This document shows positions 1,508 through 37,954 of a DNA stretch of 50,807 nucleotides, one piece after another. The notes under the pieces are model-generated. The model was not told the DNA's origin. It saw only the letters and a list, made by a program, of their open reading frames with translations, and did no database searches. Position 1 is the stretch's first letter, and each line of letters opens with the position of its first letter. Location of the stretch: positions 1 to 50,807 of the IMG/VR virus record IMGVR_UViG_3300028577_000015. One strand, 5' to 3'. This stretch comes from a virus. A program made the translations under genes and the position numbers.

Positions 1508-1540
1508 GCCCGCCGGGAAGTTTCCCCGAGCGGGCTTTTT
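1508..1540 (+). terminator. Rho-independent terminator
   Basis: Arms GCCCGC (1508-1513) and GCGGGC (1530-1535) enclose a second G/C-rich helix (CGGG with CCCG) and are followed directly by five T. It closes the short rightward operon 1-1462. Confidence 0.75.
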
Positions 1541-1555
1541 CATGGGTGCACGCCA

Positions 1556-2608
1556 GTGAACCTTCAGCCCTTGATCCGCGACTGGCACGCCCACGAGCTA
1601 CAGGCCGACTATGGCCTCGACGGCGTCCGCCTGGTGATGGGCTGCCCGGTGTGGGGCGACCTCTACGTCGACCAGTTCCTCGGCTATTGCCTGCCGTCGT
1701 TGGTCGCGAACAAGATCGATGGCTGCGCGCTCGTGTTGTTCGTCGATGGCCCGACCGAGCAGCGTCTGCTGGGCTACCCCTGTCCCATCCCGACGATCTT
1801 CCGGCGCCTGCCCGAGCCGATCATGGAAGGCCTCTACGCCGAGCCCGGCCACAAGTATTTTCTGCTCGCCGCGGCGCACAACCTGCTGATCCACCAAGCT
1901 GCCAAGGTCGGCGCCGGCTTCCACATGACAGTGCCGGACACGGTCTACAGCGTGAACTACTTCGAAAACCTCGAGCGCCTCGGCAAGCAGCACGCGGCGA
2001 TCGCACACACCGGCTTTGCCATCGTGCCGAGGACTGGCCTGCCGGTGCTGGACGGTTTCCGTCAGGCCAGCACGCTGAAGATCTCCGCCGCTGATCTCGG
2101 CCGCATCGGCTGGGAGCATCTGAACCCGCAGTGGGCCAGCTGGACGATGGACGACATCACCGACTTTCAGTCGTCCGGTGAAAACGGACAACTGCCGCTG
2201 ATGCCGTCGTCGCACTACATCCACTGGCGCGGCCGCGACGCGTACCGCATCCACTGCGCGCACCAGAGCGCCGCCTGGATCAGCCCGGAGCGTTGCAAGC
2301 AGGTCACCCCCGAGCTTGGCGGCACGGTCGACTCCGAGCTGCCGCGCTACCTGGCCGGTGATTTCTATGCGCCGACGCTGGCCGACGATATGACCTACAT
2401 CGTCATCGCCTGCGAATCGCCGGTCGACGGCCGCGTCCCGTTCGAGGTGTTCCAGAAGGAGTTCTGGCGATTCATCGGGTCAGACCGCCGGTTCATGCCG
2501 TACTTTCTCGCCCCGTGCGTGGTGCCAGCGCCCCACGACGAGAGCGCGCCCGATGACGCCGAGTTGGACCGGCGCCTGGCCGCTCTGATAGCCCGGCTGG
2601 AGGCGTGA
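1556..2608 (+). CDS. Glycosyltransferase-like protein
   Basis: This 350-residue cytoplasmic protein starts at GTG, with no strong ribosome site. Near its start a beta-strand/loop runs into Cys30-Pro-Val-Trp-Gly, followed by a helix with Leu-Pro-Ser-Leu and then a strand Leu-Phe-Val-Asp-Gly at about 61-65; a second segment at about 124-137 has Pro-Asp followed by Tyr-Ser. This pattern resembles a poorly characterised group of GT-A-like proteins found near polysaccharide genes. There is no obvious DxD, so activity is uncertain. It stands alone between two terminators, outside the packaging operon, as expected for an accessory (moron) gene. Modification of host surface sugar or virion glycan is inference. 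Confidence 0.4.
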   Translation: MNLQPLIRDWHAHELQADYGLDGVRLVMGCPVWGDLYVDQFLGYCLPSLVANKIDGCALVLFVDGPTEQRLLGYPCPIPTIFRRLPEPIMEGLYAEPGHKYFLLAAAHNLLIHQAAKVGAGFHMTVPDTVYSVNYFENLERLGKQHAAIAHTGFAIVPRTGLPVLDGFRQASTLKISAADLGRIGWEHLNPQWASWTMDDITDFQSSGENGQLPLMPSSHYIHWRGRDAYRIHCAHQSAAWISPERCKQVTPELGGTVDSELPRYLAGDFYAPTLADDMTYIVIACESPVDGRVPFEVFQKEFWRFIGSDRRFMPYFLAPCVVPAPHDESAPDDAELDRRLAALIARLEA

Positions 2609-4005: not shown

Positions 4006-5328
4006 ATGCCCCAGGCAAAGCGAAAATCCGCCCCTGAGCAGGGAATTTCGGCACCCGGAGCAGGGAATTGGCCCGCCGACAAGGTCGAGCGCCGGCCGAT
4101 CGATAGCCTAGTGCCGCACGTCAACAACGCCCGGACGCACTCGGACCAGCAGATCGACCAGCTGGCCGCCTCGATGCGGGAGTGGGGTTGGACCAGCCCG
4201 GTGCTGGTCGACGAGGACGGGACGATCATCGCCGGCCACGGCCGAGTACTCGCCGCTCGCCGGCTCGGCTTCACCGAGGTGCCGGTCATGGTAGCCGTCG
4301 GATGGAGCGCCGAGCAGAAGCGGGCTTATGTCCTGGCCGACAACCAGTTGGCGCTGAACGCCGGCTGGAACGACGAGCTGCTGCAGATCGAACTCAAGGG
4401 ACTCGAGGCGCTGAACTTCGACCTCGGTCTACTCGGCTTCGCTGACCTGCCGGCGCTGCTCGCGAAGGGCGCCGGCAAGACCGACCCGGACGAGACGCCG
4501 GAGCCGCCGGCCGAGCCGGTCACGTTCCTCGACGACGTCTGGATCCTCGGCGACCACCGGCTGATCTGCGGCGACTGCACCGTCGGCGATGTCGTGGCCA
4601 ACCTGCTCGACGGCGCCGCGCCGCACCTGATGGTGACCGACCCGCCGTATGGGGTCGAGTATGACGCGCGCTGGCGCCTCGAGGCGGGGGTGAACAAGGC
4701 GCACCAGAAGCGCGCCGAAGGCAAGGTGCTGAACGACGATCGCTCAGACTGGCGTGAGGCTTGGGAGCTGTTCCCAGGCGACATCGCCTACGTCTGGCAT
4801 GGCGGACTTCACGCCGCGAAGGTTTCGGAAAGCCTGGCGCACTGCGACTTCATCATTCGCTCACAGATCATCTGGAGGAAGACCTCGCTGGTCATGGGGC
4901 GCGGGCACTATCACTGGCAGCACGAACCCTGCTGGTACGCGGTCAGGAAGGGTGCGGCCGGAAGCTGGGCGGGCGACCGCAAGCAGTCGACGGTGTGGGA
5001 TATAGCGAACATGCACCGCACCCAAGGCAACGTCGACGACGGCAAGACGAACCACTCGACACAGAAGCCGGTCGAGTGCATGCGCCGCCCAATCGAGAAC
5101 AACAGCAAGCCGGGCGACGCGGTGTACGAGCCGTTCTCCGGATCCGGCACCACGATCATCGCCGCCGAGATGACCGGCCGTCGCTGCTACGCCGTCGAGC
5201 TCAACCCGGCCTACGTCGATGTCGCCGTGCAGCGGTGGCAACTTTTCACCGGCAAAGAGGCAACCCTCGAAAACGATGGCCGCTCGTTCGCAGCAGTAGC
5301 CGCGGAGCGCGTCCAGAAAGGGGCGTGA
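4006..5328 (+). CDS. ParB-like domain fused to DNA methyltransferase
   Basis: The product has 440 residues. Residues about 28-120 are a ParB/Srx-type N-terminal domain with the box Gly-His-Gly-Arg (77-80) and the Ala-Asp-Asn-Gln motif (111-114). Residues about 172-430 are an SAM-dependent amino-methyltransferase: motif IV Asp-Pro-Pro-Tyr-Gly at 212-216 comes before motif I Phe-Ser-Gly-Ser-Gly-Thr-Thr at 377-383, the beta-class order. DPPY predicts N6-adenine or N4-cytosine methylation; the target is not readable. Such fusions are common just upstream of phage terminases, and may protect phage DNA or mark packaging DNA. It is the first gene of the packaging operon and overlaps the next by TGATG. 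Confidence 0.9.
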   Translation: MPQAKRKSAPEQGISAPGAGNWPADKVERRPIDSLVPHVNNARTHSDQQIDQLAASMREWGWTSPVLVDEDGTIIAGHGRVLAARRLGFTEVPVMVAVGWSAEQKRAYVLADNQLALNAGWNDELLQIELKGLEALNFDLGLLGFADLPALLAKGAGKTDPDETPEPPAEPVTFLDDVWILGDHRLICGDCTVGDVVANLLDGAAPHLMVTDPPYGVEYDARWRLEAGVNKAHQKRAEGKVLNDDRSDWREAWELFPGDIAYVWHGGLHAAKVSESLAHCDFIIRSQIIWRKTSLVMGRGHYHWQHEPCWYAVRKGAAGSWAGDRKQSTVWDIANMHRTQGNVDDGKTNHSTQKPVECMRRPIENNSKPGDAVYEPFSGSGTTIIAAEMTGRRCYAVELNPAYVDVAVQRWQLFTGKEATLENDGRSFAAVAAERVQKGA

Positions 5329-5759
5329 TGGTACGCCCAACGCACGAACCGACCGACTCCAACCGCAAGACCGTCGAGAGCATGTCGGGATACGGGATCC
5401 CCGAAGACGACATTGCCCTGGTGATCGGCATCGATCCGAAGACGCTGCGCAAGCACTATCGCCGCGAGTTGGACCTCGGTCACATCAAGGCGAATTCGGC
5501 GGTGGCACAGAACCTTTTCAAGAGGGCAACCGGCGATGGCTCGCAATCCGTCACGGCTGCGATCTTTTGGGCCAAGACCCGCATGGGTTGGCGGGAAACC
5601 ACCAGGCTTGAGCATAGCGGCCCGGAAGGCCGACCTATCCAGCTCGACCTTACGAAGCTGACCGCCGATGAACTTGAGAAGCTCGAGGCAATCATCGGTC
5701 CGCTTGCCGAGCGCCCCGACGATGATGAGCCTGATCAGGGCGGAGAAGGAGAGACGTAA
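5328..5759 (+). CDS. Putative terminase small subunit (HTH protein)
   Basis: The product has 143 residues and starts at the ATG in TGATG shared with the methyltransferase stop. Residues about 14-40 form a helix-turn-helix (Gly-Tyr-Gly-Ile-Pro-Glu-Asp-Asp-Ile-Ala, then Asp-Pro-Lys-Thr-Leu-Arg-Lys-His-Tyr). A helical segment ending in Phe-Trp-Ala-Lys-Thr-Arg-Met-Gly-Trp (about 82-90) follows, and the tail is acidic. This pattern recurs directly upstream of large terminase genes, where it is taken as the DNA-recognition subunit that starts packaging. Its 3' end overlaps the 5' end of the large subunit. Confidence 0.65.
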   Translation: MVRPTHEPTDSNRKTVESMSGYGIPEDDIALVIGIDPKTLRKHYRRELDLGHIKANSAVAQNLFKRATGDGSQSVTAAIFWAKTRMGWRETTRLEHSGPEGRPIQLDLTKLTADELEKLEAIIGPLAERPDDDEPDQGGEGET

Positions 5760-7209
5760 GCTCGACGCCGAGCGCGAGCGCGTCAGAAACGACGCCGAGA
5801 AGATCAGGGCCCGCTGCAAGTCGTTCGCCGGCTTCGTCCGCGAGGCCTGGCACGTCATCGAGCCGAACACGCCGCTGGTGTGGAACTGGCACCTCGACGC
5901 CATCTGCAGCCACCTGGAGGCGGTGACCGACGGCCGCATCAACCGGCTGCTGATCAACGTGCCGCCCGGCTCGTCGAAGTCGCTGATCGTCAGCGTCCTG
6001 TTTCAGGCTTGGGAGTGGGGGCCGAAGGGTCTGCGCGCCATGCGCTACCTCGCGACGGCCTTCAACGACGGCCCGGTCAAACGAGACACCCGCAAGTGCC
6101 GCGACCTGATGCTGTCGGAGTGGTATCGCTCGCTCTGGCCTGAAGTCGTGCTGACGAGGACCGCCGAGCTATCGTTCGCCAACGACAGCACCGGCACGCG
6201 CGAGGGTGTCGCTTTCGGTTCGCTGACCTCGCAGCGCGGCGATCGCCTCCTGATCGACGACCCGCATTCGACCGAAACCGCCGAGAGCCCTGCCGATCGA
6301 GTCCGGACGACCCGCATGTTCCGCGAGGGCGCCGTCAACCGCCTCAACGACCAGGAGCGGTCGGCGATCATCGTCATCATGCAGCGGCTGCACGAGGACG
6401 ACGTCTCCGGCGTGATCAAGAAGCTGGGCATGGACTACGTCCACCTTTGCCTGCCGATGGAGTTCGAGGTCGAGCGTCGGTGCACCACCCGCATCGGCTT
6501 CGTCGACCCTCGCGAGAACGATGGCGACCTGCTCGATCCGGTGCGTTTCCCACGCTCGGTCGTCGAAGCCCTGAAGCGTGACATGGGCAGCTACGCCTAT
6601 GCCGGTCAGTACCAGCAGCGACCGTCACCGCGCGACGGCGGCCTGTTCAAGCGGCAGTGGTTCGAGGGCAAGGTCATCAAAGAGCCGCCGCCCGGGACCA
6701 AGTGGGTGCGGCATTGGGATCTGGCGGCGACGAAGCGGGTGACCGCAGCCCGCACCGCTGGCGTCAAGATCGGTCGGACACCGACTGGCCGCTTCGTGGT
6801 CGCGCACGTCGTCAAGACGCAGGACGAGGGCAGCGAGATCCGCAAGCTGATCAAGGCCGTGGCCGAGGCCGACGGTAGGGACGTCGAGATCAGCCTGCCG
6901 CAGGATCCCGGCCAGGCCGGCAAGGTCCAGGCGCAGGACTTCGTGGCGATGCTCGCCGGCTGGCGGGTGAGGGCTGAACCTGAAACTGGCGACAAGGTGA
7001 CCCGCGCGCAGCCGTTCTCGGCGCAGTGCGAGGCCGGAAACGTCGACCTGGTCGAGGGCGCCTGGAACCAGGACTACCTCGACGAGCTCTGCCTCTTTCC
7101 GAGCGGCACGTTCAAGGACCAGGTCGATGCATCATCGGGTGCGTTCGGGCGGCTCGTCACCGCCGCGAGAGCACCTGCCGCGCAGTCCGGCGCCACGCGG
7201 AGGAATTGA
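5722..7209 (+). CDS. terL: Terminase large subunit
   Basis: The product has about 495 residues from the ATGATG at 5722; the frame is open further upstream. The ATPase domain shows Walker A Pro-Pro-Gly-Ser-Ser-Lys-Ser (about 80-87) and Walker B Leu-Leu-Ile-Asp-Asp-Pro (about 176-181). The RNase H-like nuclease domain has its first acidic motif in His-Trp-Asp-Leu-Ala (about 330) and later acidic positions in Gln-Asp-Pro-Gly-Gln-Ala-Gly-Lys (about 392) and Lys-Asp-Gln-Val-Asp-Ala (about 466). It is the motor that cuts concatemers and pumps DNA into the prohead through the portal encoded next. Confidence 0.95.
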   Translation: MMSLIRAEKERRKLDAERERVRNDAEKIRARCKSFAGFVREAWHVIEPNTPLVWNWHLDAICSHLEAVTDGRINRLLINVPPGSSKSLIVSVLFQAWEWGPKGLRAMRYLATAFNDGPVKRDTRKCRDLMLSEWYRSLWPEVVLTRTAELSFANDSTGTREGVAFGSLTSQRGDRLLIDDPHSTETAESPADRVRTTRMFREGAVNRLNDQERSAIIVIMQRLHEDDVSGVIKKLGMDYVHLCLPMEFEVERRCTTRIGFVDPRENDGDLLDPVRFPRSVVEALKRDMGSYAYAGQYQQRPSPRDGGLFKRQWFEGKVIKEPPPGTKWVRHWDLAATKRVTAARTAGVKIGRTPTGRFVVAHVVKTQDEGSEIRKLIKAVAEADGRDVEISLPQDPGQAGKVQAQDFVAMLAGWRVRAEPETGDKVTRAQPFSAQCEAGNVDLVEGAWNQDYLDELCLFPSGTFKDQVDASSGAFGRLVTAARAPAAQSGATRRN

Positions 7210-10401: not shown

Positions 10402-11562
10402 GTGGCCAACACTCTGACTGGTCTTATTCCGACCATCTACACCGGTCTCGACATCGTCTCGCGCGAGCTGATCGGTTTCATCCCGAACGTCTCTCGCGAT
10501 GCCAAGGCCGACTCCGCTGCGCTCAACCAGACCGTTCGCTCGCACGTCGTGCCGGCGATCGCGACCGAAGACATCTCCGCGGGCGCCACTCCGGCTGACT
10601 CCGGCGACATGACGGTCGGCTACGTCGACGTCACCATCACCAAGTCGAAGGCGGCGCCGATCCGCTGGACCGGTGAGGAGCAGCTGTCCGTCGGCGGGCA
10701 ACTCAACCCGATCCTGGTCGATCAGTTCGCCCAGGCATTCCGCGTCCTCGCCAATGCGGTCGAGGTCGACCTTGCGGCCCTCTACAAGAAGGCCTCGCGC
10801 GCCTACGGCACCGCCGCTTCGACGCCGTTCGGCACTGCCTCGGATCTCAGCGATCTGGCACAGATCAACAAGATCCTCGACGACAACGGCGCGCCCGCGA
10901 CCGGTCGCATCCTGATCCTGGGCTCGGCCGCTCGCGCCAACCTGGAAGGCAAGCACTCCGAACTGTTCCGAGTGAACGAGGCCGGCGATGCCGGTGCCAT
11001 GTTGCGTCAGCGCATGATGCGCCAGCTGCAGGGATTCACCATGGGCTACTCGGCGGGCATTGCATCTCAGACCGGCGGCGCCGGCACTGGCTACCTCGTC
11101 AACAACGCCGCCACCATCCTGGTCGGCGCCACCACGGTCGCTGTCGATACCGGCACGGCGAACACCACCGGCATCCAGGCCGGTGATGTGATCACCTTCG
11201 GCACCTCCGACAAGTACATCGTCGGCACCGGCATCACGACTGCGGCCGGCAACATCGTCATCAACAACCCCGGCATCGTGAAGGCCGCGATTGCCGACAA
11301 CCAGGCGATCAACGTCTCGGCGAGCTACACCGCCAACATGGCGTTCACGCAGAACGCCCTGGTCTTGGCGGCTCGCACGCCTGCGATGCCGGCGGGCGGT
11401 GACTCGGCCGATGACGTGATCAACGTCACGGATCCGGTCTCCGGGCTCACCTTCCAGATCGCCTACTATCGCCAGTATCGCCGCACCAAGATCGAGGTCG
11501 GCTTGGCGTGGGGCGTCCAGATGGCGAAGCCGGAGCACTGCGCCGTCCTGATGGGCGCCTAA
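10402..11562 (+). CDS. Major capsid protein (P22 coat-like)
   Basis: The product has 386 residues, starting at GTG directly after a perfect AGGAGG. The N-terminal Val-Pro-Ala-Ile-Ala-Thr-Glu-Asp-Ile block, the central Arg-Trp-Thr-Gly-Glu-Glu-Gln (about 92-98), Ala-Ser-Arg-Ala-Tyr-Gly-Thr and Asp-Asn-Gly-Ala-Pro, and a Gly/Thr-rich inserted segment (about 225-300) match the P22-type coat family with an HK97 fold. It builds the icosahedral shell. The strong site and the terminator after the gene suit high expression. Confidence 0.9.
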   Translation: MANTLTGLIPTIYTGLDIVSRELIGFIPNVSRDAKADSAALNQTVRSHVVPAIATEDISAGATPADSGDMTVGYVDVTITKSKAAPIRWTGEEQLSVGGQLNPILVDQFAQAFRVLANAVEVDLAALYKKASRAYGTAASTPFGTASDLSDLAQINKILDDNGAPATGRILILGSAARANLEGKHSELFRVNEAGDAGAMLRQRMMRQLQGFTMGYSAGIASQTGGAGTGYLVNNAATILVGATTVAVDTGTANTTGIQAGDVITFGTSDKYIVGTGITTAAGNIVINNPGIVKAAIADNQAINVSASYTANMAFTQNALVLAARTPAMPAGGDSADDVINVTDPVSGLTFQIAYYRQYRRTKIEVGLAWGVQMAKPEHCAVLMGA

Positions 11563-11579
11563 GCCTACTGAAACGATAC

Positions 11580-11610
11580 GGGGCGGTCGAAGTGGGCCGC
11601 CCCGCCTTTC
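11580..11610 (+). terminator. Hairpin after the coat gene
   Basis: Arms GGGGCGG (11580-11586) and CCGCCCC (11597-11603) with a ten-base loop are followed by GCCTTTCTC, a weak T stretch. It may stop or attenuate transcription between the coat gene and the methyltransferase gene. Confidence 0.55.
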
Positions 11611-11629
11611 TCTCGCAGAAGGAAACCAA

Positions 11630-12325
11630 ATGGCCGCCCTCACGCCGGAAATCGTCGCCGCGGTCATCGATCAGGTCCGGCCCAAATACACGCTCACTCC
11701 GCCCCAGGCGCTTGAGATCACCATCCGCCGCGTGATCGACGCCATCGAGAAGAACATTCCCGGTGACCTGGTCGAGTGCGGCACCTGGATGGGCGGCTGC
11801 AGCTACGCCATGCTGCATGTCCAGCGCGCGATCTACGGAGAAATCCGCCGGCCCGTGTGGATGTACGACAGCTTTGAAGGCATGTCCCCGCCGTCGAAGG
11901 AGGACGGAAATCACGCCGCCGGATGGTACGGCGAGCAGACGAACCTGCCCCGCGACGTTGCGAGCAATCACTACTGCATCGCGCCATATCCGCTGGTGGT
12001 CGCTGCGGTCGCCGAGCAGGGTTTCCAAGACCACGTCATCCTGCGCAAAGGCTGGCTGGCCGACACGCTGCCAGAGCGCAAGCCCGACCAGGTCGCCGTC
12101 CTGCGCATCGATTGCGACTGGTATGAGCCGGTGATGTGCTGCCTCGAGCAGCTGGTCCCGAACGTGTCGGTCGACGGGTCGATCATCCTGGACGATTACT
12201 ACGCCTGGGAGGGCTGCACGCTGGCCACCCACGAGTACCTCGCCAAGCACAACCACCCGTGGATCATCCGGTCGATCGAGGATGGCCACGGCTGCTGGAT
12301 GATCAAGCGGCCGGCGACCTGGTAA
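11630..12325 (+). CDS. TylF/MycF-type SAM-dependent O-methyltransferase
   Basis: The product has 231 residues. SAM motif I is Val-Glu-Cys-Gly-Thr-Trp-Met-Gly-Gly (48-56), followed by the acidic end of strand 2 in Tyr-Asp-Ser-Phe-Glu-Gly-Met-Ser (79-86). Leu-Arg-Ile-Asp-Cys-Asp-Trp-Tyr-Glu-Pro (158-167) and Leu-Asp-Asp-Tyr-Tyr (187-191) supply the aspartates that bind Mg in TylF/MycF/NovP enzymes. Those enzymes methylate sugar hydroxyls, so a sugar or glycoconjugate substrate is likely but unproven. It is cytoplasmic, with no signal peptide. It interrupts the head module, between the coat hairpin and the connector gene, where no enzyme is expected. Its base composition does not stand out. Confidence 0.8.
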   Translation: MAALTPEIVAAVIDQVRPKYTLTPPQALEITIRRVIDAIEKNIPGDLVECGTWMGGCSYAMLHVQRAIYGEIRRPVWMYDSFEGMSPPSKEDGNHAAGWYGEQTNLPRDVASNHYCIAPYPLVVAAVAEQGFQDHVILRKGWLADTLPERKPDQVAVLRIDCDWYEPVMCCLEQLVPNVSVDGSIILDDYYAWEGCTLATHEYLAKHNHPWIIRSIEDGHGCWMIKRPATW

Positions 12326-12348
12326 CCGAGTGACCACGGAGGCTGACC

Positions 12349-12888
12349 ATGTCGCTGATCGTCGAAGACGGCACCGCTCCGGCTGGCGCTGATACCTATG
12401 CCTCGCTCGCTACGATCAACGCCTATGCGCTCTCGCGCGGGCTGACGTTCGCCATCACCGGCGCCGACACCACGCCAGCCGAACAGGCCGCCCGCCGCGC
12501 CTTCGTCTTCATCAACACTCGCTACCGGTCGCGGTTCACGGGCATCCGCACCTATCGGCGCCTGCAGTCGGGCGAGTTCCCGCGATACAATTGCTATGAC
12601 GCGCAGGACCCGCCTTCGTACCTGCACTTCAATGAGATCCCGCAGGAGATCATCGACGCTCAGTGCGAGGCGGCGATCCGCGAGAAGGCGACGCCTGGTT
12701 ACCTCAACCCGGATGTAACCCCAGGCAAGATCAAGAAGTCGTTCAGCGCCGGTGGTGTCGCCGTCGTCTACGAGGTCGGTTCATCGGGCGCGGGAGGACA
12801 GAGGCCCGACATGGCCGTGATCGACGAGATCCTGTCGTCGTTGATTGGCAGGTCCTCGGGCTATTCCGGAAAGTCTCTCCGCGGATGA
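12349..12888 (+). CDS. Head-tail adaptor (DnaT-like ssDNA-binding fold)
   Basis: The product has 179 residues. It begins with the Ala-Asp-Thr-Tyr-Ala-Ser-Leu block (14-20), continues with helices containing Ala-Arg-Arg-Ala-Phe-Val-Phe-Ile, then Ile-Pro-Gln-Glu-Ile-Ile-Asp-Ala-Gln (about 96-104) and Ser-Phe-Ser-Ala-Gly-Gly (about 131-136). This is the family annotated as putative DnaT-like, which by position is the neck adaptor bound to the portal ring. It follows the methyltransferase gene by 23 bases and overlaps the next gene by ATGA. Confidence 0.75.
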   Translation: MSLIVEDGTAPAGADTYASLATINAYALSRGLTFAITGADTTPAEQAARRAFVFINTRYRSRFTGIRTYRRLQSGEFPRYNCYDAQDPPSYLHFNEIPQEIIDAQCEAAIREKATPGYLNPDVTPGKIKKSFSAGGVAVVYEVGSSGAGGQRPDMAVIDEILSSLIGRSSGYSGKSLRG

Positions 12889-13504: not shown

Positions 13505-14506
13505 ATGGCCAGCCGGTCGACCCTGCAGGACCGGATCCAGGCCCTGCTGACAAAGTATGAGCCGCAGATCCGAGACGCCTTCCTGGCGTCGATCAGCGAC
13601 ATCACGAACCGCGCCAAACTCGGCGCCATCATCGCCGCCTTGGAGCGCGGGGACATCGAGGGGGCGCTGGCGGCAGTCCATGTCGAGCCGGCGGCATTCC
13701 AGCCACTCGAGTCCGCGATCCGGACCGGCTTCGTGCAGGCGGCCACCACGACGGCAGCCGCGATCCCGGCCCAGGTCGTTGTCCGCTTCGATGCGCGCAA
13801 CCCGGCGGCCGAGCAGTGGCTGTCGACGCACTCGTCCCAGGCCATCGTCGAAATCGTCGCCGACCAGCGCACTGCAGTCCGGATCGCGCTGACGGACGGC
13901 ATGGCCCGCGGCGACAATCCGCGGACCACGGCGCTCAACGTGGTCGGCCGCATCGGACAGTCGGGGCGCCGGGAAGGCGGCATCGTCGGGTTGACCTCGC
14001 AGATGGAGCGGTACGTCGCTAACGCGCGCGCCGAGCTGACCAGCGGAAACCCGGTCACCATGCGTGGCTACTTCACCCGGCTGCGCCGCGACAAGCGGTT
14101 CGACGGCATCGTGCTCAAGGCCATCAAGGACGGAAAGCCGGTGGACGCCGCGACGGTGAGCCGGCTGACCAGCCGCTATGCCGATCGCCTGCTGGCGCTG
14201 CGCGGCGAGACTATCGGCCGAACCGAAAGCATGGCCTCGATCCACGAGGCCCAGCACCAGGCTTATCTGCAGGCGGTCGGGAAGGGCGCCGTCAAGGCCT
14301 CCGCTGTTCGCCGCACCTGGATCGCCACAAAGGACTCGAGGACGCGCGACAGCCACCGGCACCTGGACGGCACCACCGTCGGGCTCAATGAGCGGTTTCC
14401 CAACGGCTGCCTATTCCCGGGCGACCCGTCGGCCGATATCGCCGAGATCGCGAACTGCCGCTGCCATTTGATGGTCCGCATCGATCGCCTCTCGAACCTG
14501 GAGTGA
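13505..14506 (+). CDS. Minor head / MuF-like protein (SPP1 gp7 family)
   Basis: The product has 333 residues. Most of it is helical. The C-terminal 90 residues carry the family signature: Arg-Thr-Glu-Ser (about 239-242), Trp-Ile-Ala-Thr-Lys-Asp-Ser-Arg-Thr-Arg-Asp-Ser-His (about 272-284), Asp-Gly-Thr and Pro-Gly-Asp-Pro-Ser, then Asn-Cys-Arg-Cys. The family acts in head morphogenesis and is probably ejected with the DNA. It starts immediately after the previous stop and ends seven bases before the gp10-like gene. Confidence 0.85.
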   Translation: MASRSTLQDRIQALLTKYEPQIRDAFLASISDITNRAKLGAIIAALERGDIEGALAAVHVEPAAFQPLESAIRTGFVQAATTTAAAIPAQVVVRFDARNPAAEQWLSTHSSQAIVEIVADQRTAVRIALTDGMARGDNPRTTALNVVGRIGQSGRREGGIVGLTSQMERYVANARAELTSGNPVTMRGYFTRLRRDKRFDGIVLKAIKDGKPVDAATVSRLTSRYADRLLALRGETIGRTESMASIHEAQHQAYLQAVGKGAVKASAVRRTWIATKDSRTRDSHRHLDGTTVGLNERFPNGCLFPGDPSADIAEIANCRCHLMVRIDRLSNLE

Positions 14507-14512
14507 CCGGCG

Positions 14513-14947
14513 ATGGCGCAGCAGTCGTTCCAGAGTTCAATCGATGCCTGGGTGCAGAAGACGAAGGCCCGCATGGAGGCGGTGGTCAAAAACGCCGCCG
14601 AGTCGGTGATCGAGGAAGTCGTCTTACGTTGTCCCGTGGACACGGGCTTCTTACGAGCCTCTCTGACGGCCTCGCTCGACGGTCCTCTGCCGATGCGGAA
14701 CGACAAGCCTGCGGGTGCGGCGCCGAATTCATTCGACGCCCAGGACGTCTCTCTGGTGATCGAAGGCGCGCAGCTGGGCCAGACCATCTACGCTTCGTTC
14801 ACCGCCCGTTACGCCAGCTTCGTGGAATATGGAACGAAGCACACAAACCCCGTCGGCATGGTGAGATTGTCCGCGGCCAACTGGGGTTTTCATGTCGAAA
14901 GCGCTGTAAGGCAGGCAAAGGCTGCGGTAAATTCAGCGGGCCGCTAA
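14513..14947 (+). CDS. HK97 gp10-like head-tail joining protein
   Basis: The product has 144 residues. Pro-Val-Asp-Thr-Gly-Phe-Leu-Arg-Ala-Ser-Leu (about 41-51) and Phe-Val-Glu-Tyr-Gly-Thr (about 104-109) are the two hallmarks of the HK97 gp10 family, which links head to tail. The start ATG follows GGAG. The normal next gene, the tail terminator at 15940, is displaced by almost 1 kb by an endonuclease gene and an antisense frame. Confidence 0.85.
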   Translation: MAQQSFQSSIDAWVQKTKARMEAVVKNAAESVIEEVVLRCPVDTGFLRASLTASLDGPLPMRNDKPAGAAPNSFDAQDVSLVIEGAQLGQTIYASFTARYASFVEYGTKHTNPVGMVRLSAANWGFHVESAVRQAKAAVNSAGR

Positions 14948-15003
14948 GGGACTGGAACTCCCCTAGCGACCCTAACCAAACGCAACCCATTGGAGGGGTT
15001 GGA

Positions 15004-15702
15004 ATGGCTCGCAAACGCATATGCTCAGTCGATGGCTGCGGCAACCCCACGCAAGGGGCTGGCTATTGCTCTGGTCACTACAAGCGACTGCTAAGATACG
15101 GCGATCCGCTAGGTCGCCCCAAATTCAAGAACGGCGGCAAATGTCTGGTCGGCGGGTGTCTCGGAGTGGCGCGTTCAAAGGGGATGTGCCGTCGCCACTT
15201 TTTGAGGTTCAAGGATCACGGCGATCCGTTGGCTGGCCGGACGCCTGAAGGCGTTCCCGAAGCGTGGCTCCGATCCCATGCGACGCACGACGAACCGGGT
15301 TGTCTTATCTGGCCTTTTAGCAAGGGCAAAAAATACGGGCACGTCACGTTTGACGGACGAAAGACGACGCCCCACCGCGCAATGTGCGAGTTGGTGAATG
15401 GGCCGCCACCATCCGCCTCTCATGAGGCTGCGCATGACTGCGGAAAAGGCCACGAGGGTTGTGTCCACCCGGGCCATCTACGCTGGGACACGTCGAAGGG
15501 AAACCACGCCGACAGGTTGATCCACGGCACGCACACTCGCGGCGAGCGCAACGGCTGGGCAAAACTGGACCGCGAGAATGTCAGAGAGATTCGCCGCCTA
15601 CACGGTGTCGTGAAAATGAAGGAGATTGCCGAACGGTTCGGCGTTCACATCGGCACCGTCGAGAAGATCATTGCCGGTCGCGCGTGGGCTTGGCTGGACT
15701 AG
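15004..15702 (+). CDS. Free-standing HNH homing-type endonuclease
   Basis: The product has 232 residues, starting at ATG after GGAGGGG. Two Cys-x4-Cys-type zinc fingers near the N-terminus (Cys-Ser-Val-Asp-Gly-Cys and Cys-Leu-Val-Gly-Gly-Cys, each with a later Cys/His pair) precede an HNH domain at about 125-175: His-Arg-Ala-Met-Cys-Glu-Leu-Val, then Cys-x-x-Gly-His and Cys-Val-His-Pro-Gly-His-Leu, and Gly-Asn-His-Ala-Asp. The C-terminal 45 residues are a helix-turn-helix (Lys-Leu-Asp-Arg-Glu-Asn-Val and Ile-Ala-Glu-Arg-Phe-Gly-Val). Such proteins cut DNA near their own insertion site and spread by homing. The preceding gene looks intact. Confidence 0.85.
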   Translation: MARKRICSVDGCGNPTQGAGYCSGHYKRLLRYGDPLGRPKFKNGGKCLVGGCLGVARSKGMCRRHFLRFKDHGDPLAGRTPEGVPEAWLRSHATHDEPGCLIWPFSKGKKYGHVTFDGRKTTPHRAMCELVNGPPPSASHEAAHDCGKGHEGCVHPGHLRWDTSKGNHADRLIHGTHTRGERNGWAKLDRENVREIRRLHGVVKMKEIAERFGVHIGTVEKIIAGRAWAWLD

Positions 15703-16432: not shown

Positions 16433-16933
16433 ATGGCCATCCACAAAACTGCTGGCGCGAAGGTCTACATTCTGACGACTGCCGTCGACCCGAACGTCAT
16501 CAACGCCTACGGCACTGACGCCTCGGCGATCGCGTACTTCACCGCCCTGAGCGGTTGGATCGAGATCGAGGAAGTCGAGAACCTCGGCAGCATCGGCGAC
16601 CAGTCCAACCCGATCAACTTCACCTCGATCAACAACCGCCGCACCCGCGCCCTCAAGGGTCCGCGTGATGCGGGCACGCACCAGATCGTCTGCGGTCGTG
16701 ATCCGCTCGCAGCCGGGCAGATCGCGATGATGACGGCGCAGGCGACTGACTACAACTTCCCGTTCCGCGTCACCCTGGCGGACATCCCGCCGGGCACCAC
16801 CACGCCGACGCAGATGTACTACGCCGGCATGGTGATGTCGGACCCGACGAACCTGGCCGACGTGAACGCGGTCACGCGCCGCGACTTCAACGTCAAGATC
16901 AACACGAAGCTGTACGAAATTGCTGCCGTCTGA
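16433..16933 (+). CDS. Major tail tube protein
   Basis: The product has 166 residues behind AAGGAG. It has the repeated beta strands, Asn-Leu-Gly-Ser-Ile-Gly-Asp (about 50-56), Ala-Leu-Lys-Gly-Pro-Arg-Asp-Ala-Gly (about 73-81) and the late Gly-Met-Val-Met-Ser motif of alphaproteobacterial phage tail tube proteins. It stacks as hexameric rings around the tape measure. An excellent terminator follows, consistent with a highly expressed monocistronic message. Confidence 0.85.
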   Translation: MAIHKTAGAKVYILTTAVDPNVINAYGTDASAIAYFTALSGWIEIEEVENLGSIGDQSNPINFTSINNRRTRALKGPRDAGTHQIVCGRDPLAAGQIAMMTAQATDYNFPFRVTLADIPPGTTTPTQMYYAGMVMSDPTNLADVNAVTRRDFNVKINTKLYEIAAV

Positions 16934-17471: not shown

Positions 17472-17908
17472 GCGCCTTCGCCCTCGACGCCTTCGTCGAG
17501 GGGCGCACTCAACGGGACCGGCTGGAATCCCAACTTGAGCGAGCCGAAGAGTATCTCGCCAAAGGGATAAAGGTCGACGAGGCCAAGGCCCGGGTCGCCG
17601 CACTGCAGGCCGACCTGGTCGTGCCGCCGTTCCCGGTGGCGATGGCCTACCTCTGGAAGGCCTACATGCGGCTCCGGCGCCGCAAGTCGATGGGCTTCAA
17701 CGGCCTCAACAAGATCGAATGGCCGGACATCGACGCCTTCATGCGGGCCTCCCGGTTTCCGCTCGCGCCGTGGGAAATCGAGATCATCGAAGACCTCGAC
17801 GACATCTACTGCAGGGTCTCGGCGGACATCCGCGCCGGAACGGCCGGCACCGCCAGCCAGTCCGACACAGCCATCGCCGACAGCTTGAAGAGTGTCGCGA
17901 AACAGTAG
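17429..17908 (+). CDS. Tail assembly chaperone, frameshift extension (T-like)
   Basis: This -1 frame has no ATG, GTG or TTG start before the chaperone stop; it is expected as the C-terminal 158 residues of a GT-type fusion of about 302 residues. It has a long charged helix (Gln-Arg-Asp-Arg-Leu-Glu-Ser-Gln-Leu-Glu), then Val-Pro-Pro-Phe-Pro-Val-Ala-Met-Ala-Tyr-Leu-Trp and Ile-Glu-Trp-Pro-Asp-Ile-Asp-Ala-Phe-Met, features of tail chaperone T domains. In lambda the GT form recruits the tube protein to the tape measure. It ends ten bases before the tape-measure start. Confidence 0.75.
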   Translation, partial: FYKGLGDQLRAHAERAFALDAFVEGRTQRDRLESQLERAEEYLAKGIKVDEAKARVAALQADLVVPPFPVAMAYLWKAYMRLRRRKSMGFNGLNKIEWPDIDAFMRASRFPLAPWEIEIIEDLDDIYCRVSADIRAGTAGTASQSDTAIADSLKSVAKQ

Positions 17909-17918
17909 GGAGGCCGCC

Positions 17919-20900
17919 GTGGAAGACATCGCCTCCCTTGGTCTGTCGATCGACAGCAGTCCGCTCACCGAGACCAACCGCCAGCTCGACAAGTTTCCCG
18001 CGTCAGCCGGCGCTGCGGAACGTTCCGCCAAGAGTCTCGGTGATGCTGTCGCTGCGGCGTCAGCCAAGGCCGTGGCCGCAACCGGCGCGCAGGCCGCAGC
18101 GATGGACGCGGCCGTCGCGAACGTCACGCGCGGCCGCACTCAGTACGACATCATGGGCGCGAGCGTGACCAAGGCCGCCGCCGCCATGGACACGATCGTT
18201 CAGAAGTCTGCCGGCATGCGGGCGCTCTCCGACGCCATCGACGCCGCATCAGTGAAGAACACGAAGCTGGCCGCAAGCACGGCCCAGGCCGCGAGCGCCT
18301 TGCCGGCGGTTGCCGCATCGGCGGCCGCAACGCAGGCCAAAGTCGACGCCGCGACGGTTGCGGTCAACAAACTGTCGGACGCCCTGGCCTTCGGTTCATC
18401 GCGAACCGTAGGCAAGGCGGCAGAGAGTGCCGGCACCGCCCTCGTCGGCGTGCTGGGACCGATCGGCTTGGTCGTTGCTGGCACGGTTGCCGCCGCGGCG
18501 GCCTATGCTGTTCTGGTGGTCGAAGCAGCCAAGGTCAGCGACGCCCTGGCCGAACAGCAGCGTCGCCTCGGCACCTTGCTGGGCTCACAAAATCAGGCAG
18601 CGGCTGCCTACAAGGATATCGCGGGCTTCGCCTCCGCGGTTGGGATCAGCGTTGGCGATGCCACGGAGAAGTTCGTCGCCTTCGCGCGCGCCGGCCAGGC
18701 TGTCGGCGCCGTGCGGCAGAACATCATCGATATCACCTCGGTGGCGGAGAAGCTGACGCAGCTATCCGGAGCCAACCCCGCCGAGGGCGGCGCGGCCCAG
18801 CAGGCTCTTGCCGGCATGCTGAAGGACAGCGTGGTCAGCGCCGCGCAGCTCACCACCGTGCTCGACAACGTCCCTCAGATCGTCGGGAAGATCGCAGACG
18901 GCCTCGGCGTGTCGGTCACGCAGCTCCGCCTCATGGCGCAGCAGGGCGACCTCTCCAACAAGCAGGTGTTCGATGCCCTGCTGTCGCAGACCAAGGCGGT
19001 CGACGCCGAGTTTGCGCAGATGCCGAAGTCGATCGGCAGCACGTTTCGGAGCCTTGGAGACGATCTCGGGCAGCTGTTGATTCGCTTTGCCAACCTCTTG
19101 CCGCTGGTGCGGGAATACCGGTCGGCCATCGAATTGGCGGCGGTGGCGGCGAAGGCGCTGAACGACGCCACCAAGCAGGAGACGCCTGCGCAGGTCATCG
19201 CGCGGACGGTGCCGCTGATGGGGACTGGCGCGGCCATTGATACGCGCGGTCGCGATGTCCTTGGTATTGGTCAGATGTCGCCGGCGGCCAGCGCTGCCGC
19301 CAGCGCAGAGGCCGCAAAGCAAGCGCAGAAGGAATTCTCTGCTGCCATCGCCCAAATGATGGCCGACTTCGAAGACCAGCAGGGCGCTGCGTCGACCGCC
19401 GTGCAGAAGCTCGCCGCCCAGGCCATCCTCGATGCTGTCGCGATCGCCGACAAGCTCGACGCCGCGTCCGCGAGCATGAAGGAGTTCCAGCGGCAGACCG
19501 AGACGGCGAAGAAGGGTCTCGACGCCATCCAGGGCGGCTTCTCCGGTTTGGATTCCGCGACGGCCGTGCAGCAGACCAAGAGCCTCACGGATGCGCTGCA
19601 GCTCCTGCAGGACAAGTCGCTGGAAGCCACGACGGCATACGGAAAGGCGCTTGATGCTCTCGCCCAACACGGGCAGCAGAGCGAGCTCGGCATGACGCCG
19701 GGCCAAATCGCCACGCAGGCGCAGGTCAAGACGCTCACCCTGTCGCAGCCAGGCATCCCGACCGAGGCCGCGCAGGGAATTGTGACCGCGCAGCAAGGCC
19801 AGATGCTCGACGACATGATCCAGAAGCAGGGTCGCGAGCTCATCGTTCAGACGGCCATTACGCAGGCGCTGAGGGGCGGAAAGGCCGCCGCCGACGAGGC
19901 CGCTGTCGCCATGCAGGTGCTTGGCATCGCATTCGAGCAGCTCGGCACACTGACGCCCGAACTGCAGGTCAAGCTCGACGTGCTAGCCCAGACGCTGGGT
20001 GACATCAAGCAACAGGCCCGCGAACAGGCGACGATCGAGGCCTCCAAGCCGCTGGAAGATGACCTCGCGGCGATTGCGGCGGCGATGAAGGTGGTCGAGC
20101 AGGGCAGCTACGCTATGAAGCTCGCCCAACAGCAGGCCAGGTCCGCGCTCTCGGATAATGGGACCGGCGGCCTGCAGCTGGAAGTCTTCAACGCCCAGCA
20201 GGCTTTGACCGATGCCGCGACGCTGAAGAACCTGAGCGACCAACTCGATCTCACGAAGAAGCTGGCCGCCGCCGCCGGCGACGTGGCCGCGCAAAAGAAG
20301 ATCCAGCTGGATTACGACATCAAGCAAGCTCAGATGAACGCGGCGCCCGGGGCGGCAGCTGGCATCGACCAGAATATGCGGGACCAGGCCGCCGCGAAGC
20401 AGACTCTCGACCTGGCCAACGGTTCGGCCGAGATGCAGCGGCAGCTCGACCTCACCAAGCAGCAGACCGACCTGGTGCGCAACGGCTCGGCCGACTACGC
20501 CGCCCAGCTCGCCATGATGCAGAAGCGGAACGAGCTCGAACAGAAGTTCGGCGACATCTCGCAAAACACAGAGGCGCAGCGCCAGATCGACCTGGCCGGA
20601 GAGCAGGCCCGCGCCAACGTCGACCTCCAGCGCGCCCAGGATGCCGCCGCGCACACGAAGCAGATCTGGCAGAACGCCTACGACAATATCCAGAGCGCCA
20701 TCGGCGATGCGTTCTACAACGCCTTTAGCACCGGCGTGTTCAACGCCAAGTCGGCCGCCGACGCGATGAAGCAGATTTTCCTTCGCACGCTGGCGGAGAT
20801 CGCCGCCGCTGCAATCATTCGCCCGATCGTCCAGCCGATCTTCGCGGCCGGTCAGTCGGCCGGCATCATCCCGAACGGCGTCGGCGGTACGTCGGGCATC

Positions 20901-23900
20901 GGTTCTGGCGGTGGCGGTCTCGGCATGCCGAGCATCGGTGGCACCGGCGCGACCAGCTGGATGGGCGATTTCGGCTCTTGGCTCAACACGCCGTTCATCA
21001 GCGCGTTCGCTCCAGCAGTCCCGGCCGGCGGATATACCGATGTCGGTTCGCTCATCAGCGCGCAGAACCTGGGACAAGGTCTGACGCCGCTCGGTGCGTT
21101 CGCCGGCGCCGCGTCCATCGGCCTGGGCGCCTATAACCTGATCAACTCCAAGTCGGCGGGCGGTGCCATCGGCGGCGCGGCCAGCATCCTCGGCGGCGGC
21201 CTCGGTATCGCTGGCGCGTTGGCGCCTGCGGCTCTCGGCGGGCTGCTCGGCCCGATCGGCATGGGCATCGGCCTGCTCGGCGCCTTCCTGCCCGGACTCC
21301 TGGGCGGCAACACTCCGCCTCCGCCAAAGGTGATGGCGACGGGCGGACTCAACTTCAACGCCGGGAAGTGGAACTACAACGGCAGCGAATACAACGGCGG
21401 GCAGGGCCTCGGCGGCACGCTCGGCGGCGTCGGCGGCACGATGAAGAGCCTCATGGACGCGGCCGGCGTCACGAGCCTCACGTCGTCGAATTCGTTGAAC
21501 TACCAGACGCTCTCGCAGGGTCAGTTCTCCAACGCCACCACGTTCGTCAACGGGATGCAGTGGGGGCAGGGCAGTGGCAACGACGCCGGCCTCGACACGG
21601 CGGCCGCTCACATCGCGCACATGATCATGATGGAGCCCGGCAGCGGCATCTCCGACCTGATGCGCCAAGGGCTCGGCAACTATGGCCAGCAGAACCTCGA
21701 CCACGCGTTCTCGACGCAGGAGTTGAGCACGGCGGTGTCCGAGCTGAAGGCGCTCGATACCACCATGAAGGATCTCGGCCGCACCATCACGCCAGCCGAG
21801 ACGGCGCTCAAGCAGATCGACGATCAGTTCAAGGCCCTCACCGACACGGCCACGAAGTACGGGCTCGACACCACGAAGATTGATAGCGAGCAAGCGAAGG
21901 CCAGCACGAAGGTTGCCACCGACTTTGCCGACGGCATCCAGCGCCAGATCGACGACATGTCGGACCCGACAAAGGGCCTCCTGTCCGACCTCGACAAAGC
22001 CAAGCAAGACGCGATCGACAACAACAACTACATCCTCGCCAACGTCGTCGGTGCGCAGGACCAGATTGCCAATATCGAAGCGCTGTATGGCGCCAAGCGC
22101 GCGGCGATCGTCGAGGCTGCCGCCAAGCAGGCGCAGGCCTATTGGGACACGCTCGCCCAGGGCCAATCGGCGGTCTGGAGCACCACCGATCCGACGCGGG
22201 CGCAGTTCGCGGCGCTCAACACGAGTTATGCGAAGGATTACGCGGCCGCATGGAGCGCAGGCGGCAGCGTCGACGGGCAGGGTCCGACCGACAAAACACT
22301 CGCGCTCACGGACCTGGCCGACCAGACGTATCACGCGCAGCGCGACAAGCTGGTCGGCGATTTCATTGGCGGCCTCGAAGCGGGCATCACGCAGCTCAAC
22401 GATCCGATGCGCGCGCAGCTTGACGCGCTGGCCAAGACGCGCGACGCCAACCTGCTGTCGGCTGCCGCGATCAAGGATGCCACCGGCAACACCGAGGCGC
22501 TGACCGTCGCTCAACAGTCCTACGACAAGTCGGTCGCCAAGCTCGCCGACGACTTCGTGTCCGGCCTCGCCACGTCGCTGACCGCGCTCGTCGACCCGAT
22601 GCGCAGCACGATCGATGGTCTCCAGAAGCAGCGCGACACCAACATGGTCGCCGCCCAGGCCATCGCCGATGCTACGGGCCGCACCGATGCGTTGACCGCC
22701 GCGACGGCGCTCTACAACGCCCAGATCGCCAAGACGGCCGGCGATTTTACGAAGGGCCTCAACAGCCAGGCGCTCGGCATCACGGACCCCGTGGCGGCGC
22801 AAAAAGCGACCGCCGCCGATCAGTTCGCGGCGAACACCCTGGCGGCTCAGGCGATCAAGGATGCCACGGGAAGCACGGACGCTCTGACGGCCGCCAGCGC
22901 GCTCTACGATGCCCAACTGAAACAGATCGCGAAGTCCGTCGCCGACACGCAGCGCGGATATGACACTTTCACCACGGGCCTCGCCAGCCAGCTCACCTCG
23001 CTCACCGATCCGATGACGGGCCAGATCGATGCGCTGAAGGCGTCTCGCGACGCCAACATCCTCCAGGCCGAGACGATCCGCGATGCTACCGGCGACACGA
23101 CGGCGCTGACAGCGGCGACCGCGCTCTATAGCGGTCAGATCGCCAAGCTCGCGAAAGACTTCACGGACGGGATTGCCGATCAGAAACTGGCCATTGACAA
23201 CCCGATGGCGGCCCAGCTTGCCGGGTTCGCGAAGACGCGAGACGCCAATGTGCTGGCGGCCTCGGCGCTCGGTATCGGCAGCGGCGCCGCCATCGATCTC
23301 TACAGCGCCCAGGTCAATAAGACGGTCGGTGATTTCGTCAAGGGCCTGTCCGACCAGCTCCTGGCCCTGCAAGACCCCATGGCCGCACAGATCAAAGGCC
23401 TGGCCGATCAGCGTGATGCGAATGTACTGGCCGCAAACGCGATCAAGGACGCCACTGGCCAGACCGATGCACTGACCGCGGCCAACGATCTCTATACCAA
23501 CCAGGTCAAGAAGCTGCTGTCCGACCAAGTCAAAAGCCTGGCTGACCAGAAGCTTGCCGTCGACAACCCCATGGCGGCGCAGTTGGCCGGCTTCGCCACG
23601 ACGCGCGATGCGAACCTCAAGATCGGCCAGGCGCTGCTCGCCGCGACCGGCGACAGCTCGGCCGTCGATGGTGCCAACGCGCTTTACAATTCGCAGGTCA
23701 CCAAGACGACCGGCGACTTCATCAAGAGCCTCGGCGACCAGATCACCACGCTGAATAGTCCGGTGCAGGCGCAAATCCAGGCGCTCGATGATGCTTACAC
23801 CGCCAACCTGAAGGCCGGCCAGGCGATCAAGGACACGACCGGCGACACCACGGCCCTGACGCTGGCCACGACCTTGCATGGCGATGCGATCGCCAAGATC

Positions 23901-36574: not shown

Positions 36575-36913
36575 TAAGGCAAAGCTGATTGAAAAGCGGT
36601 CTGATTATAAGACGGCGCTTATGGCCTCACGGCTGGCGGCGTTTTTTGCGTTTCGGAGTGTGCCCATCCCGTGCCCAAATCACGTTTCACCCCGATGAAA
36701 TGGGCATCCATACACAAACGGTTATCGGGTGGAAGTCGTCACTTTCGCGCCCGAGCCCGCCTAGAACCGCCTAAATCGCCCTTTTCACGCCCGCCCTTTT
36801 CCTGCCTTATCCCGTAGTTTCCCGCCCCGGCGCGTCGGCACTGTGCCCGATTCGTGCCCTGGCGGGGCACTGTGCCCGGACACCCCGTTTGGGCACACTC
36901 CGGGGAGGGCACC
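36575..36913 (+). other. Integrase upstream region: GTGCCC repeat cluster, candidate attP
   Basis: This gap of 339 bases lacks a credible gene. A six-T run lies near 36641. The core GTGCCC or its complement occurs at 36660-36665, 36671-36676, 36843-36848, 36854-36859, 36865-36870 (complement), 36872-36877, 36891-36896 (complement) and 36907-36912 (complement). GGCACTGTGCCCG is directly repeated at 36837-36849 and 36866-36878, and GGGCAC/GTGCCC is inverted around 36871. Such clusters are typical of integrase arm sites or of an operator at an int promoter. The core crossover sequence cannot be named without a host junction. Confidence 0.6.
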
Positions 36914-37954
36914 ATGGCAACGATACGGAAGCGGCCGGGCGGTCGCTGGCAGGCGATCATACGCCGGACGGACCTGCGCGCCAGCAAGGCATTCGACCGC
37001 AAGATCGACGCCGAGACTTGGGCGCGAAAGATCGAGCATGACGCCGACATGGGGCGGGCCGGACTGCCCGGTCGGACACGCGGCACGCTGGCGGCCCTGA
37101 TCGACCGCTACGAGCGCGAGATGTACCCGGTCAAGCGCTGGGGTGCCAGCAAGGCCCACGAACTGAAATGCCTACGCCGTGACATTGGCAGCCGCCTCCT
37201 GAGCGATTTGAGCCGGCCGGTGGTCCTGGCCTACATCCGCGGGCTAGACCTCACTGGCGGGGGAATTTCCGGGCGCCTGAGCTATCTCCGCGAGGTGGTC
37301 AAGACGGCGCACGATCTGTGGGGAATGACGGTCCCGCTGGGCGAGGTCGACGCCGCGATCGCCGTGGCGCGCCGGATGAAACTGGCCGGCAAGTCGATGG
37401 CGCGCACCAGGCGGCCGACCAAGGCCGAGCTCGCCAAGATCCTGGCCTTCGCCGACGCGCAGCGGACAGCGACCATCGACCTCGGGGCTATCGTCCGGGT
37501 GTTGTCCGTCCTGCCGCTGCGGTGCGGCGAGCTGCTGGGCATCGAATGGGAGGACCTCGACCCCAAGCGGCGGACGGCGGTCATCCGGTCACGCAAGCAC
37601 CCCGACTTCCGAGTGCGCGAGAACAGCGCGCAGGAAGTGCCGCTGATCACGTTCGGCGGCGTGGACACGTTCGCCCTGGTGGCCGATCGGCCGCGCTACC
37701 TGCCGAGCCCGTTCCCGTACAAGCGCGGGAGCGTCTCGACGGCGTTCGGAATGGCGGCGCTGAAGTGCCAAATCGCCGACCTGCACATCCACGACCTACG
37801 CGCGCACGCGATTTCGTCGCTACTCGAGGCCGGGGTCGACATCCCGCAGGTGGCGCTGATCTCAGGGCACAAGAACTGGAAGGTGCTGGCGTCTCACTAT
37901 GCGCGGCTGGATGCGGCGAGCGTTCACGACGCGGTCAAGAGGGCGGAGAGCTAG
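36914..37954 (+). CDS. int: Tyrosine-type integrase
   Basis: The product has 346 residues from ATG at 36914 after GGGGAGGG. The N-terminal part has an arm-binding fold with Arg-Lys-Arg-Pro-Gly-Gly-Arg-Trp. The catalytic residues are all present: Arg203 in Pro-Leu-Arg-Cys-Gly-Glu, His293 and Arg296 in His-Asp-Leu-Arg, His319 in Ser-Gly-His-Lys, and Tyr329 in Ser-His-Tyr-Ala. It would recombine attP and attB, with the arm sites probably in the 36659-36913 cluster. The next gene is convergent with a two-base gap. Confidence 0.93.
   Translation: MATIRKRPGGRWQAIIRRTDLRASKAFDRKIDAETWARKIEHDADMGRAGLPGRTRGTLAALIDRYEREMYPVKRWGASKAHELKCLRRDIGSRLLSDLSRPVVLAYIRGLDLTGGGISGRLSYLREVVKTAHDLWGMTVPLGEVDAAIAVARRMKLAGKSMARTRRPTKAELAKILAFADAQRTATIDLGAIVRVLSVLPLRCGELLGIEWEDLDPKRRTAVIRSRKHPDFRVRENSAQEVPLITFGGVDTFALVADRPRYLPSPFPYKRGSVSTAFGMAALKCQIADLHIHDLRAHAISSLLEAGVDIPQVALISGHKNWKVLASHYARLDAASVHDAVKRAES

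What the first reader, a model, noticed from the sequence alone, without database searches (positions are those of the whole stretch)
11630..12325. TylF-type sugar O-methyltransferase inserted after the coat gene
A complete, metal-dependent-looking methyltransferase lies in the head module between coat and connector genes. Known TylF/MycF/NovP enzymes methylate sugars. Its place right behind the coat gene suggests expression with capsid proteins, perhaps to modify a virion or host glycan. I know of no established role for such an enzyme in a phage head operon.
Basis: partly seen in the sequence, partly recalled or inferred. Interest (0 to 1): 0.7.

Follow-up and report, generated by a model that had tools for sequence, protein, structure and literature searches.

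The report
Phage head-operon sugar-capping enzyme pair
A bacterial virus carries a sugar-methylating enzyme next to its shell gene and, elsewhere in the same genome, an unannotated sugar-attaching enzyme; six phages whose packaging genes mostly belong to different families keep both, so the pair probably decorates the virus particle with methyl-capped sugars, as some mycobacteriophages are reported to do.

Summary
ORF 11630-12325 (+) encodes a 231-aa TylF-family methyltransferase (MT; Pfam 117 bits, cut-off 23). Its nearest structures by sequence and by predicted fold are the sugar O-methyltransferases NovP, MycF and SpnH, and the catalytic aspartates align. It lies between the P22-type coat gene and the Ad1 connector. 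All six phages of the MT clade (window plus five IMG/VR contigs, 51-56% identity, one clade at 99/99 support) also carry an unannotated ~350-420 aa protein (G; window 1556-2608). Its AlphaFold2 model (pLDDT 90) matches GT-A glycosyltransferases. G is absent from 45 records with more distant TylF-like genes and from 22 coat-relative records. All copies but one lie in or near packaging/head modules of mostly different families. A seventh phage has G in the coat-adaptor slot, without a detectable TylF gene. Best reading: G puts a sugar on a virion protein and MT caps it. This is a variant of a known kind: cluster O mycobacteriophages have a distantly homologous O-methyltransferase plus glycosyltransferases between portal and capsid, reported to modify capsid and tail tube. 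The G family had no match in Pfam, PHROGs or PDB sequences. Nothing was tested biochemically.

The parts
11630..12325 (+). TylF-family SAM- and metal-dependent sugar O-methyltransferase (MT), 231 aa; conserved D161, D163, D188, D189; predicted mobile lid around residues 86-120
1556..2608 (+). Partner gene G: predicted GT-A fold glycosyltransferase, 350 aa, GTG start; no Pfam, PHROG or PDB sequence match
11579..11604 (+). Terminator-like hairpin (10 pairs, 9 GC) between coat and MT
1508..1540 (+). Terminator-like GC hairpin followed by TTTTT just upstream of G (approximate ends)
   Evidence: ends read from sequence and fold
10402..11562 (+). P22-type major coat protein (phrog_283), candidate acceptor of the glycan
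   Evidence: acceptor role is inference
12349..12888 (+). Head-tail adaptor Ad1 (phrog_477), 23 bp downstream of MT
5668..7209 (+). Terminase large subunit (phrog_38)
16433..16933 (+). Major tail (tube) protein, second candidate acceptor by analogy with cluster O mycobacteriophages
   Evidence: phrog_158; analogy from PMC11600133

Best explanation
MT and G form a two-enzyme virion-glycan pathway of the phage. G (predicted GT-A glycosyltransferase) transfers a host-derived sugar to a late structural protein, most likely coat and/or tail tube. MT then O-methylates a hydroxyl of that sugar, using SAM and a divalent metal held by D161/D188/D189 with D163 as general base, and so caps the glycan. 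Shown here: family and fold assignment of both proteins, conserved catalytic aspartates in MT, clade-wide co-occurrence, and location in or near packaging/head modules. Inferred: both activities, the order of the steps, the acceptor, and the benefit (shielding the particle from binding proteins, proteases or lectins, or changing adsorption).
For: MT is closest to NovP, MycF and SpnH, which act on already attached sugars, and far from the NDP-sugar methyltransferase CalS11. The top of the PDB fold list for G's model consists of GT-A glycosyltransferases. G occurs in all six phages of the MT clade (window plus 5 of 5 records) and in 0 of 45 records with more distant TylF-like genes. It is also absent from 22 records with related coat genes, which have no TylF match either. 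The pair lies in or near packaging/head genes of mostly different families, with start/stop overlaps or near-overlaps between TerL and G, G and G, or G and portal in L002, L041 and L042. In L142 G sits directly between a phrog_283 coat gene and an adaptor, the kind of slot MT holds in the window. The cluster O mycobacteriophage MT and the C-terminal domain of Che8 gp108 match the MT profile (E 5e-19 and 2e-18); the cluster O O-MT and glycosyltransferases are reported to modify capsid and tail tube, and Che8 and Corndog proteins are reported glycosylated. PBCV-1 offers a second viral precedent: its own methyltransferases cap the rhamnose of the coat-protein glycan (PMC9614988). Neither protein has a clear transmembrane segment.
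Against: No biochemical or mass-spectrometric data. In the window G lies about 3 kb upstream of TerL and 9 kb from MT, not beside it, and each is preceded by a terminator-like hairpin. G is unrelated by sequence to the Catdawg and Che8 glycosyltransferases and has only a degenerate metal motif (PD, D128, instead of DxD). L142 has G without a detectable TylF gene, and one of the three G copies of L041 lies about 1 kb before TerL-side genes rather than in the TerL-portal gap. All phages are uncultured and most records are fragments; L002/L003 and L041/L042 come from shared metagenomes and L041/L042 are close relatives; the control set was chosen by score, not at random.
Confidence: 0.62

Rival explanations
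1. The pair modifies a host surface glycan (LPS, capsule or another surface polymer) in the lysogen or late in infection, blocking superinfection or re-adsorption of progeny.
For: The phage encodes a tyrosine integrase (36854-37954), so it is probably temperate; phage-encoded surface-glycan modification is common (established knowledge); distant G relatives are domains of large alphaproteobacterial proteins, one next to a WbqC-like gene.
Against: No GtrA-type flippase and no GT2-family gene in the record, with working controls; no clear transmembrane segment in MT or G; genes lie in or near the late packaging/head region in all phages seen, not beside the integrase.
Confidence: 0.15
2. MT acts on something other than a glycan made by G, such as a nucleotide sugar, a small metabolite or phage DNA, and the co-occurrence reflects shared ancestry of linked cargo genes.
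For: TylF-like proteins occur in many viral contigs without G, and the N-terminal part of TylF enzymes is shortened here (Pfam match starts at profile position 80).
Against: Nearest enzymes are glycoside O-methyltransferases; no base-hypermodification genes turned up among the proteins scanned, though not every gene was scanned; G accompanies the MT clade across different packaging gene sets.
Confidence: 0.13
3. MT is a neutral or recently acquired cargo gene in a variable slot behind the coat gene, with no virion function.
For: The coat-Ad1 interval holds different genes in relatives, from 0.3 to 5 kb, and none of these has MT.
Against: Intact catalytic residues across 51-56% identity, GC3 like the neighbours, presence of G in every phage of the clade, and L142 carrying G in the coat-adaptor slot.
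Confidence: 0.1

Closest known systems
Cluster O mycobacteriophages (Corndog, Catdawg): portal - O-methyltransferase - three glycosyltransferases - protease - capsid
   Same: Distantly homologous O-methyltransferase (hhalign 98.8%, E 7e-17; hmmsearch E 5e-19) together with glycosyltransferases in the head module; reported to modify capsid and tail tube (PMC11600133)
   Different: Its glycosyltransferases show no sequence relation to G; here one to three G copies instead of three different transferases; other phage types; the second aspartate of the DD motif is E in Catdawg gp33 and Che8 gp108
Mycobacteriophage Che8 gp108 (glycosyltransferase fused to methyltransferase) with gp109 and gp110
   Same: C-terminal domain matches the MT profile, E 2e-18; Che8 proteins reported glycosylated (PMC12363180)
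   Different: Fused, lies near the right genome end and not in the head operon; different glycosyltransferases
TylF family sugar O-methyltransferases NovP, MycF, SpnH
   Same: Sequence, fold and catalytic aspartates
   Different: 22-30% identity in the structural alignments, shorter N-terminal region here, antibiotic sugars as their substrates
Chlorovirus PBCV-1 A064R domain 3 and A061L
   Same: Virus-encoded methyltransferases capping a coat-protein glycan, working with viral glycosyltransferases (PMC9614988)
   Different: Eukaryotic virus; sequence relation to MT not tested here

Membership tests
TylF sugar O-methyltransferase | Pfam TylF profile above curated cut-off | tested here: met
   116.9 bits, cut-off 23
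TylF sugar O-methyltransferase | Fold closest to NovP/MycF/SpnH | tested here: met
   Top 14 PDB fold hits are these three enzymes, E 1.1e-13 or better
TylF sugar O-methyltransferase | Three aspartate metal ligands and general-base aspartate | tested here: met
   D161, D188, D189 and D163 align with the LRMDGD and DDY motifs of NovP/MycF and are invariant in 11 sequences; the roles of these residues in MycF/NovP are from memory
TylF sugar O-methyltransferase | Mobile lid over the SAM site | tested here: inconclusive
   Model residues 107-114 below pLDDT 50, in the expected lid region; NovP lid described in PMC4760980
TylF sugar O-methyltransferase | N-terminal auxiliary region of the antibiotic enzymes | tested here: not met
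   Protein is 231 aa and the Pfam match starts at profile position 80; this marks the antibiotic branch and is not, to my knowledge, a condition for the whole family
TylF sugar O-methyltransferase | O-methylation of a sugar | not testable with these tools
   needs enzyme assay
GT-A glycosyltransferase (protein G) | GT-A fold | tested here: met
   pLDDT 90.3 model, PDB fold hits are glycosyltransferases; TM-scores are only about 0.2-0.5, so fold-level, not family-level
GT-A glycosyltransferase (protein G) | DxD metal motif | tested here: inconclusive
   Only a conserved D128 in HMxxPDxVY; two copies read SD; some GT-A enzymes lack DxD (established knowledge)
Corndog-type virion glycosylation cassette | Homologous O-methyltransferase in head module | tested here: met
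Corndog-type virion glycosylation cassette | Glycosyltransferases homologous to those of the mycobacteriophages | tested here: not met
   No match of G, or its profile, to Catdawg gp34-36 or Che8 gp108-110
Corndog-type virion glycosylation cassette | Glycans on capsid or tail tube | not testable with these tools
   needs mass spectrometry of virions
gtr-type serotype conversion | GtrA flippase and GT2 transferase | tested here: not met
   None in the record, controls positive

The most novel reading that the evidence does not exclude
A previously undescribed, mobile virion-glycan module of non-mycobacterial tailed phages: a new GT-A glycosyltransferase family (G), usually with a TylF-type capping methyltransferase and sometimes a second O-methyltransferase, acquired repeatedly into packaging/head operons of unrelated phages to put methyl-capped sugars on the capsid.
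Probability: 0.5. Interest if true: 0.65.

Novelty: new variant of a known kind. Interest (0 to 1): 0.52.

Why it matters
In the literature reached here, enzymatic glycosylation of tailed-phage particles is reported for a few mycobacteriophages, where it lowers antibody recognition. A separate glycosyltransferase family paired with a capping methyltransferase in phages with mostly different packaging genes would suggest that virion glycan decoration arose more than once and is wider than known. It also gives a sequence handle (G plus TylF MT) to find more cases and to test what methyl-capped virion sugars do in soil or water, where no antibodies act.

Tried and rejected
Known phage genomes: no match of window MT, or of three G queries, in the phage record collection; an MT relative as query gave only weak mycobacteriophage matches, which led to the Corndog and Che8 comparison. 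Recent horizontal insertion by composition: not supported, GC3 matches neighbours. A conserved place directly behind the coat gene for MT: rejected, relatives have other genes in that slot. Seroconversion cluster: rejected for lack of GtrA/GT2. Sequence-based naming of G through Pfam, PHROGs and PDB gave nothing; only the fold search helped. PDB sequence hits of the G profile (Sec1, PLK1) are at E 0.19 or worse and were dismissed as chance. The G tree is poorly resolved, so whether MT and G were inherited together was not decided. The Freeman 2023 paper itself is not held; statements on it come from two citing papers.

Full report
Observation. The ORF at 11630-12325 is complete and encodes 231 residues. 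It matches Pfam TylF at 116.9 bits against a cut-off of 23 and the solved enzymes NovP (E 1e-22), SpnH and MycF by sequence. Coat (phrog_283) ends at 11562 and the Ad1 connector (phrog_477) starts at 12349. GC3 is that of the neighbours. A terminator-like hairpin at 11579-11604 separates coat and MT, so coat is probably made in larger amounts than MT (inference).

Enzyme. AlphaFold2 gives a confident model (pLDDT 89); its best PDB matches are NovP, MycF and SpnH. The aspartates at 161, 163, 188 and 189 align with the corresponding motifs of NovP and MycF and are invariant among 11 aligned relatives. That D161/D188/D189 bind metal and D163 is the base is transferred from what I recall of MycF/NovP. 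The N-terminal part of the antibiotic enzymes is shortened here.

Relatives. A search with an alignment found 305 related stretches among viral contigs, of which 80 were kept. Only five share more than 50% identity with window MT: L002, L003, L040, L041, L042. A tree of 51 sequences puts these five and the window in one clade at 99/99.

Partner. L002 and L003 carry an unannotated ~400-aa protein beside TerL and portal. Its homologue lies in the window at 1556-2608 and also in L040, L041 (three copies) and L042 (two copies). Searching whole records, G is in 5 of 5 clade records and in 0 of 45 records with more distant TylF-like genes. It is absent from 22 records with related coat genes, which also lack a TylF match. 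The control set is not random and records may be fragments. G has no sequence match in Pfam, PHROGs or PDB. Its model has pLDDT 90.3 and its PDB matches are GT-A glycosyltransferases such as hyaluronan synthase, WrtF, GnT-I and SpsA. TM-scores are modest, so this is a fold-level statement. The metal motif is reduced to PD. Distant G-like domains occur in 20 of 385 genomes searched in the class of a Caulobacterales record.

Module. In L003 and L041 MT and G lie between TerL and portal; in L042 they lie directly before portal in the same order as L041, with TerL beyond the contig end. In L002 MT lies before TerL and G between TerL and portal. In L040 G and MT are adjacent, about 1.3 kb before TerL. 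In the window G lies about 3 kb before TerL and MT after coat. One further G copy of L041 (2204-3355) lies about 1.2 kb before TerL. Start/stop overlaps couple G to its neighbours in L002, L041 and L042. Packaging and portal families are mostly different: portals are phrog_145 (window), 12082 (L002, L040) and 1216 (L003, and distantly L041, L042); TerL is phrog_38 in the window and L041 and of other families elsewhere. L041 and L042 add a second O-methyltransferase (the L041 one checked). A seventh phage, L142, holds G directly between a phrog_283 coat gene and an adaptor gene, without a TylF match. So the place behind the coat recurs for the pair, though not for MT itself.

Known systems. Catdawg gp33 and the C-terminal domain of Che8 gp108 are distant homologues of MT. 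In Catdawg the order is portal, O-methyltransferase, three glycosyltransferases, protease, capsid. PMC11600133 states that these enzymes modify capsid and tail tube proteins, citing Freeman et al. 2023; PMC12363180 lists Che8, Corndog and Myrna as having glycosylated proteins. PBCV-1 methylates the terminal rhamnose of its coat glycan with its own enzymes (PMC9614988). G is not related by sequence to the mycobacteriophage transferases.

Judgement. The most likely function is virion glycosylation by G followed by methyl capping by MT. The kind is known; the glycosyltransferase family and the phage groups appear new, as far as the searches here reach. Rivals are host-surface modification, an unrelated substrate, and neutral cargo.

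Limits. No experiment was done; the phages are uncultured and most records are fragments. The co-occurrence rests on few independent events: the window plus three metagenomes for the MT clade, with L041 and L042 close relatives of each other.

Noticed in passing
window 11562-12349 and L005-L030: The coat to Ad1 interval is a variable slot; several relatives hold a small protein with a motif like KVKRDGPKGY..I....FDP..H, which the window lacks; L021 has about 5 kb of cargo including a 461-aa phosphatase-like ORF (named by eye).
   Followed up: partly
window 17892-25529: Tape-measure gene of 2545 codons whose C-terminal half is a long series of degenerate protein repeats of roughly 70 residues (DPMAAQL... 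/ KDATG.TDALTAA...); no DNA-level tandem repeat found.
   Followed up: partly
window 4006-5328: ParB-N-like domain fused to an N6/N4 DNA methylase just upstream of the terminase genes.
   Followed up: no
L041 6949-7701, L042 948-1925: Second O-methyltransferase (Methyltransf_3 type in L041; L042 by eye) directly before the TylF MT, possibly a second capping step.
   Followed up: partly
L122 976-2574: Bacterial protein with TPR-like N-terminus and a G-like domain, next to a WbqC-like and a radical SAM-like gene (annotated by eye).
   Followed up: no
window 14503-15702 and L030 5154-5888 (-): HNH-type ORF in the neck region has a relative (40% identity) next to the coat gene on the other strand in L030, suggesting a mobile homing endonuclease.
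   Followed up: no
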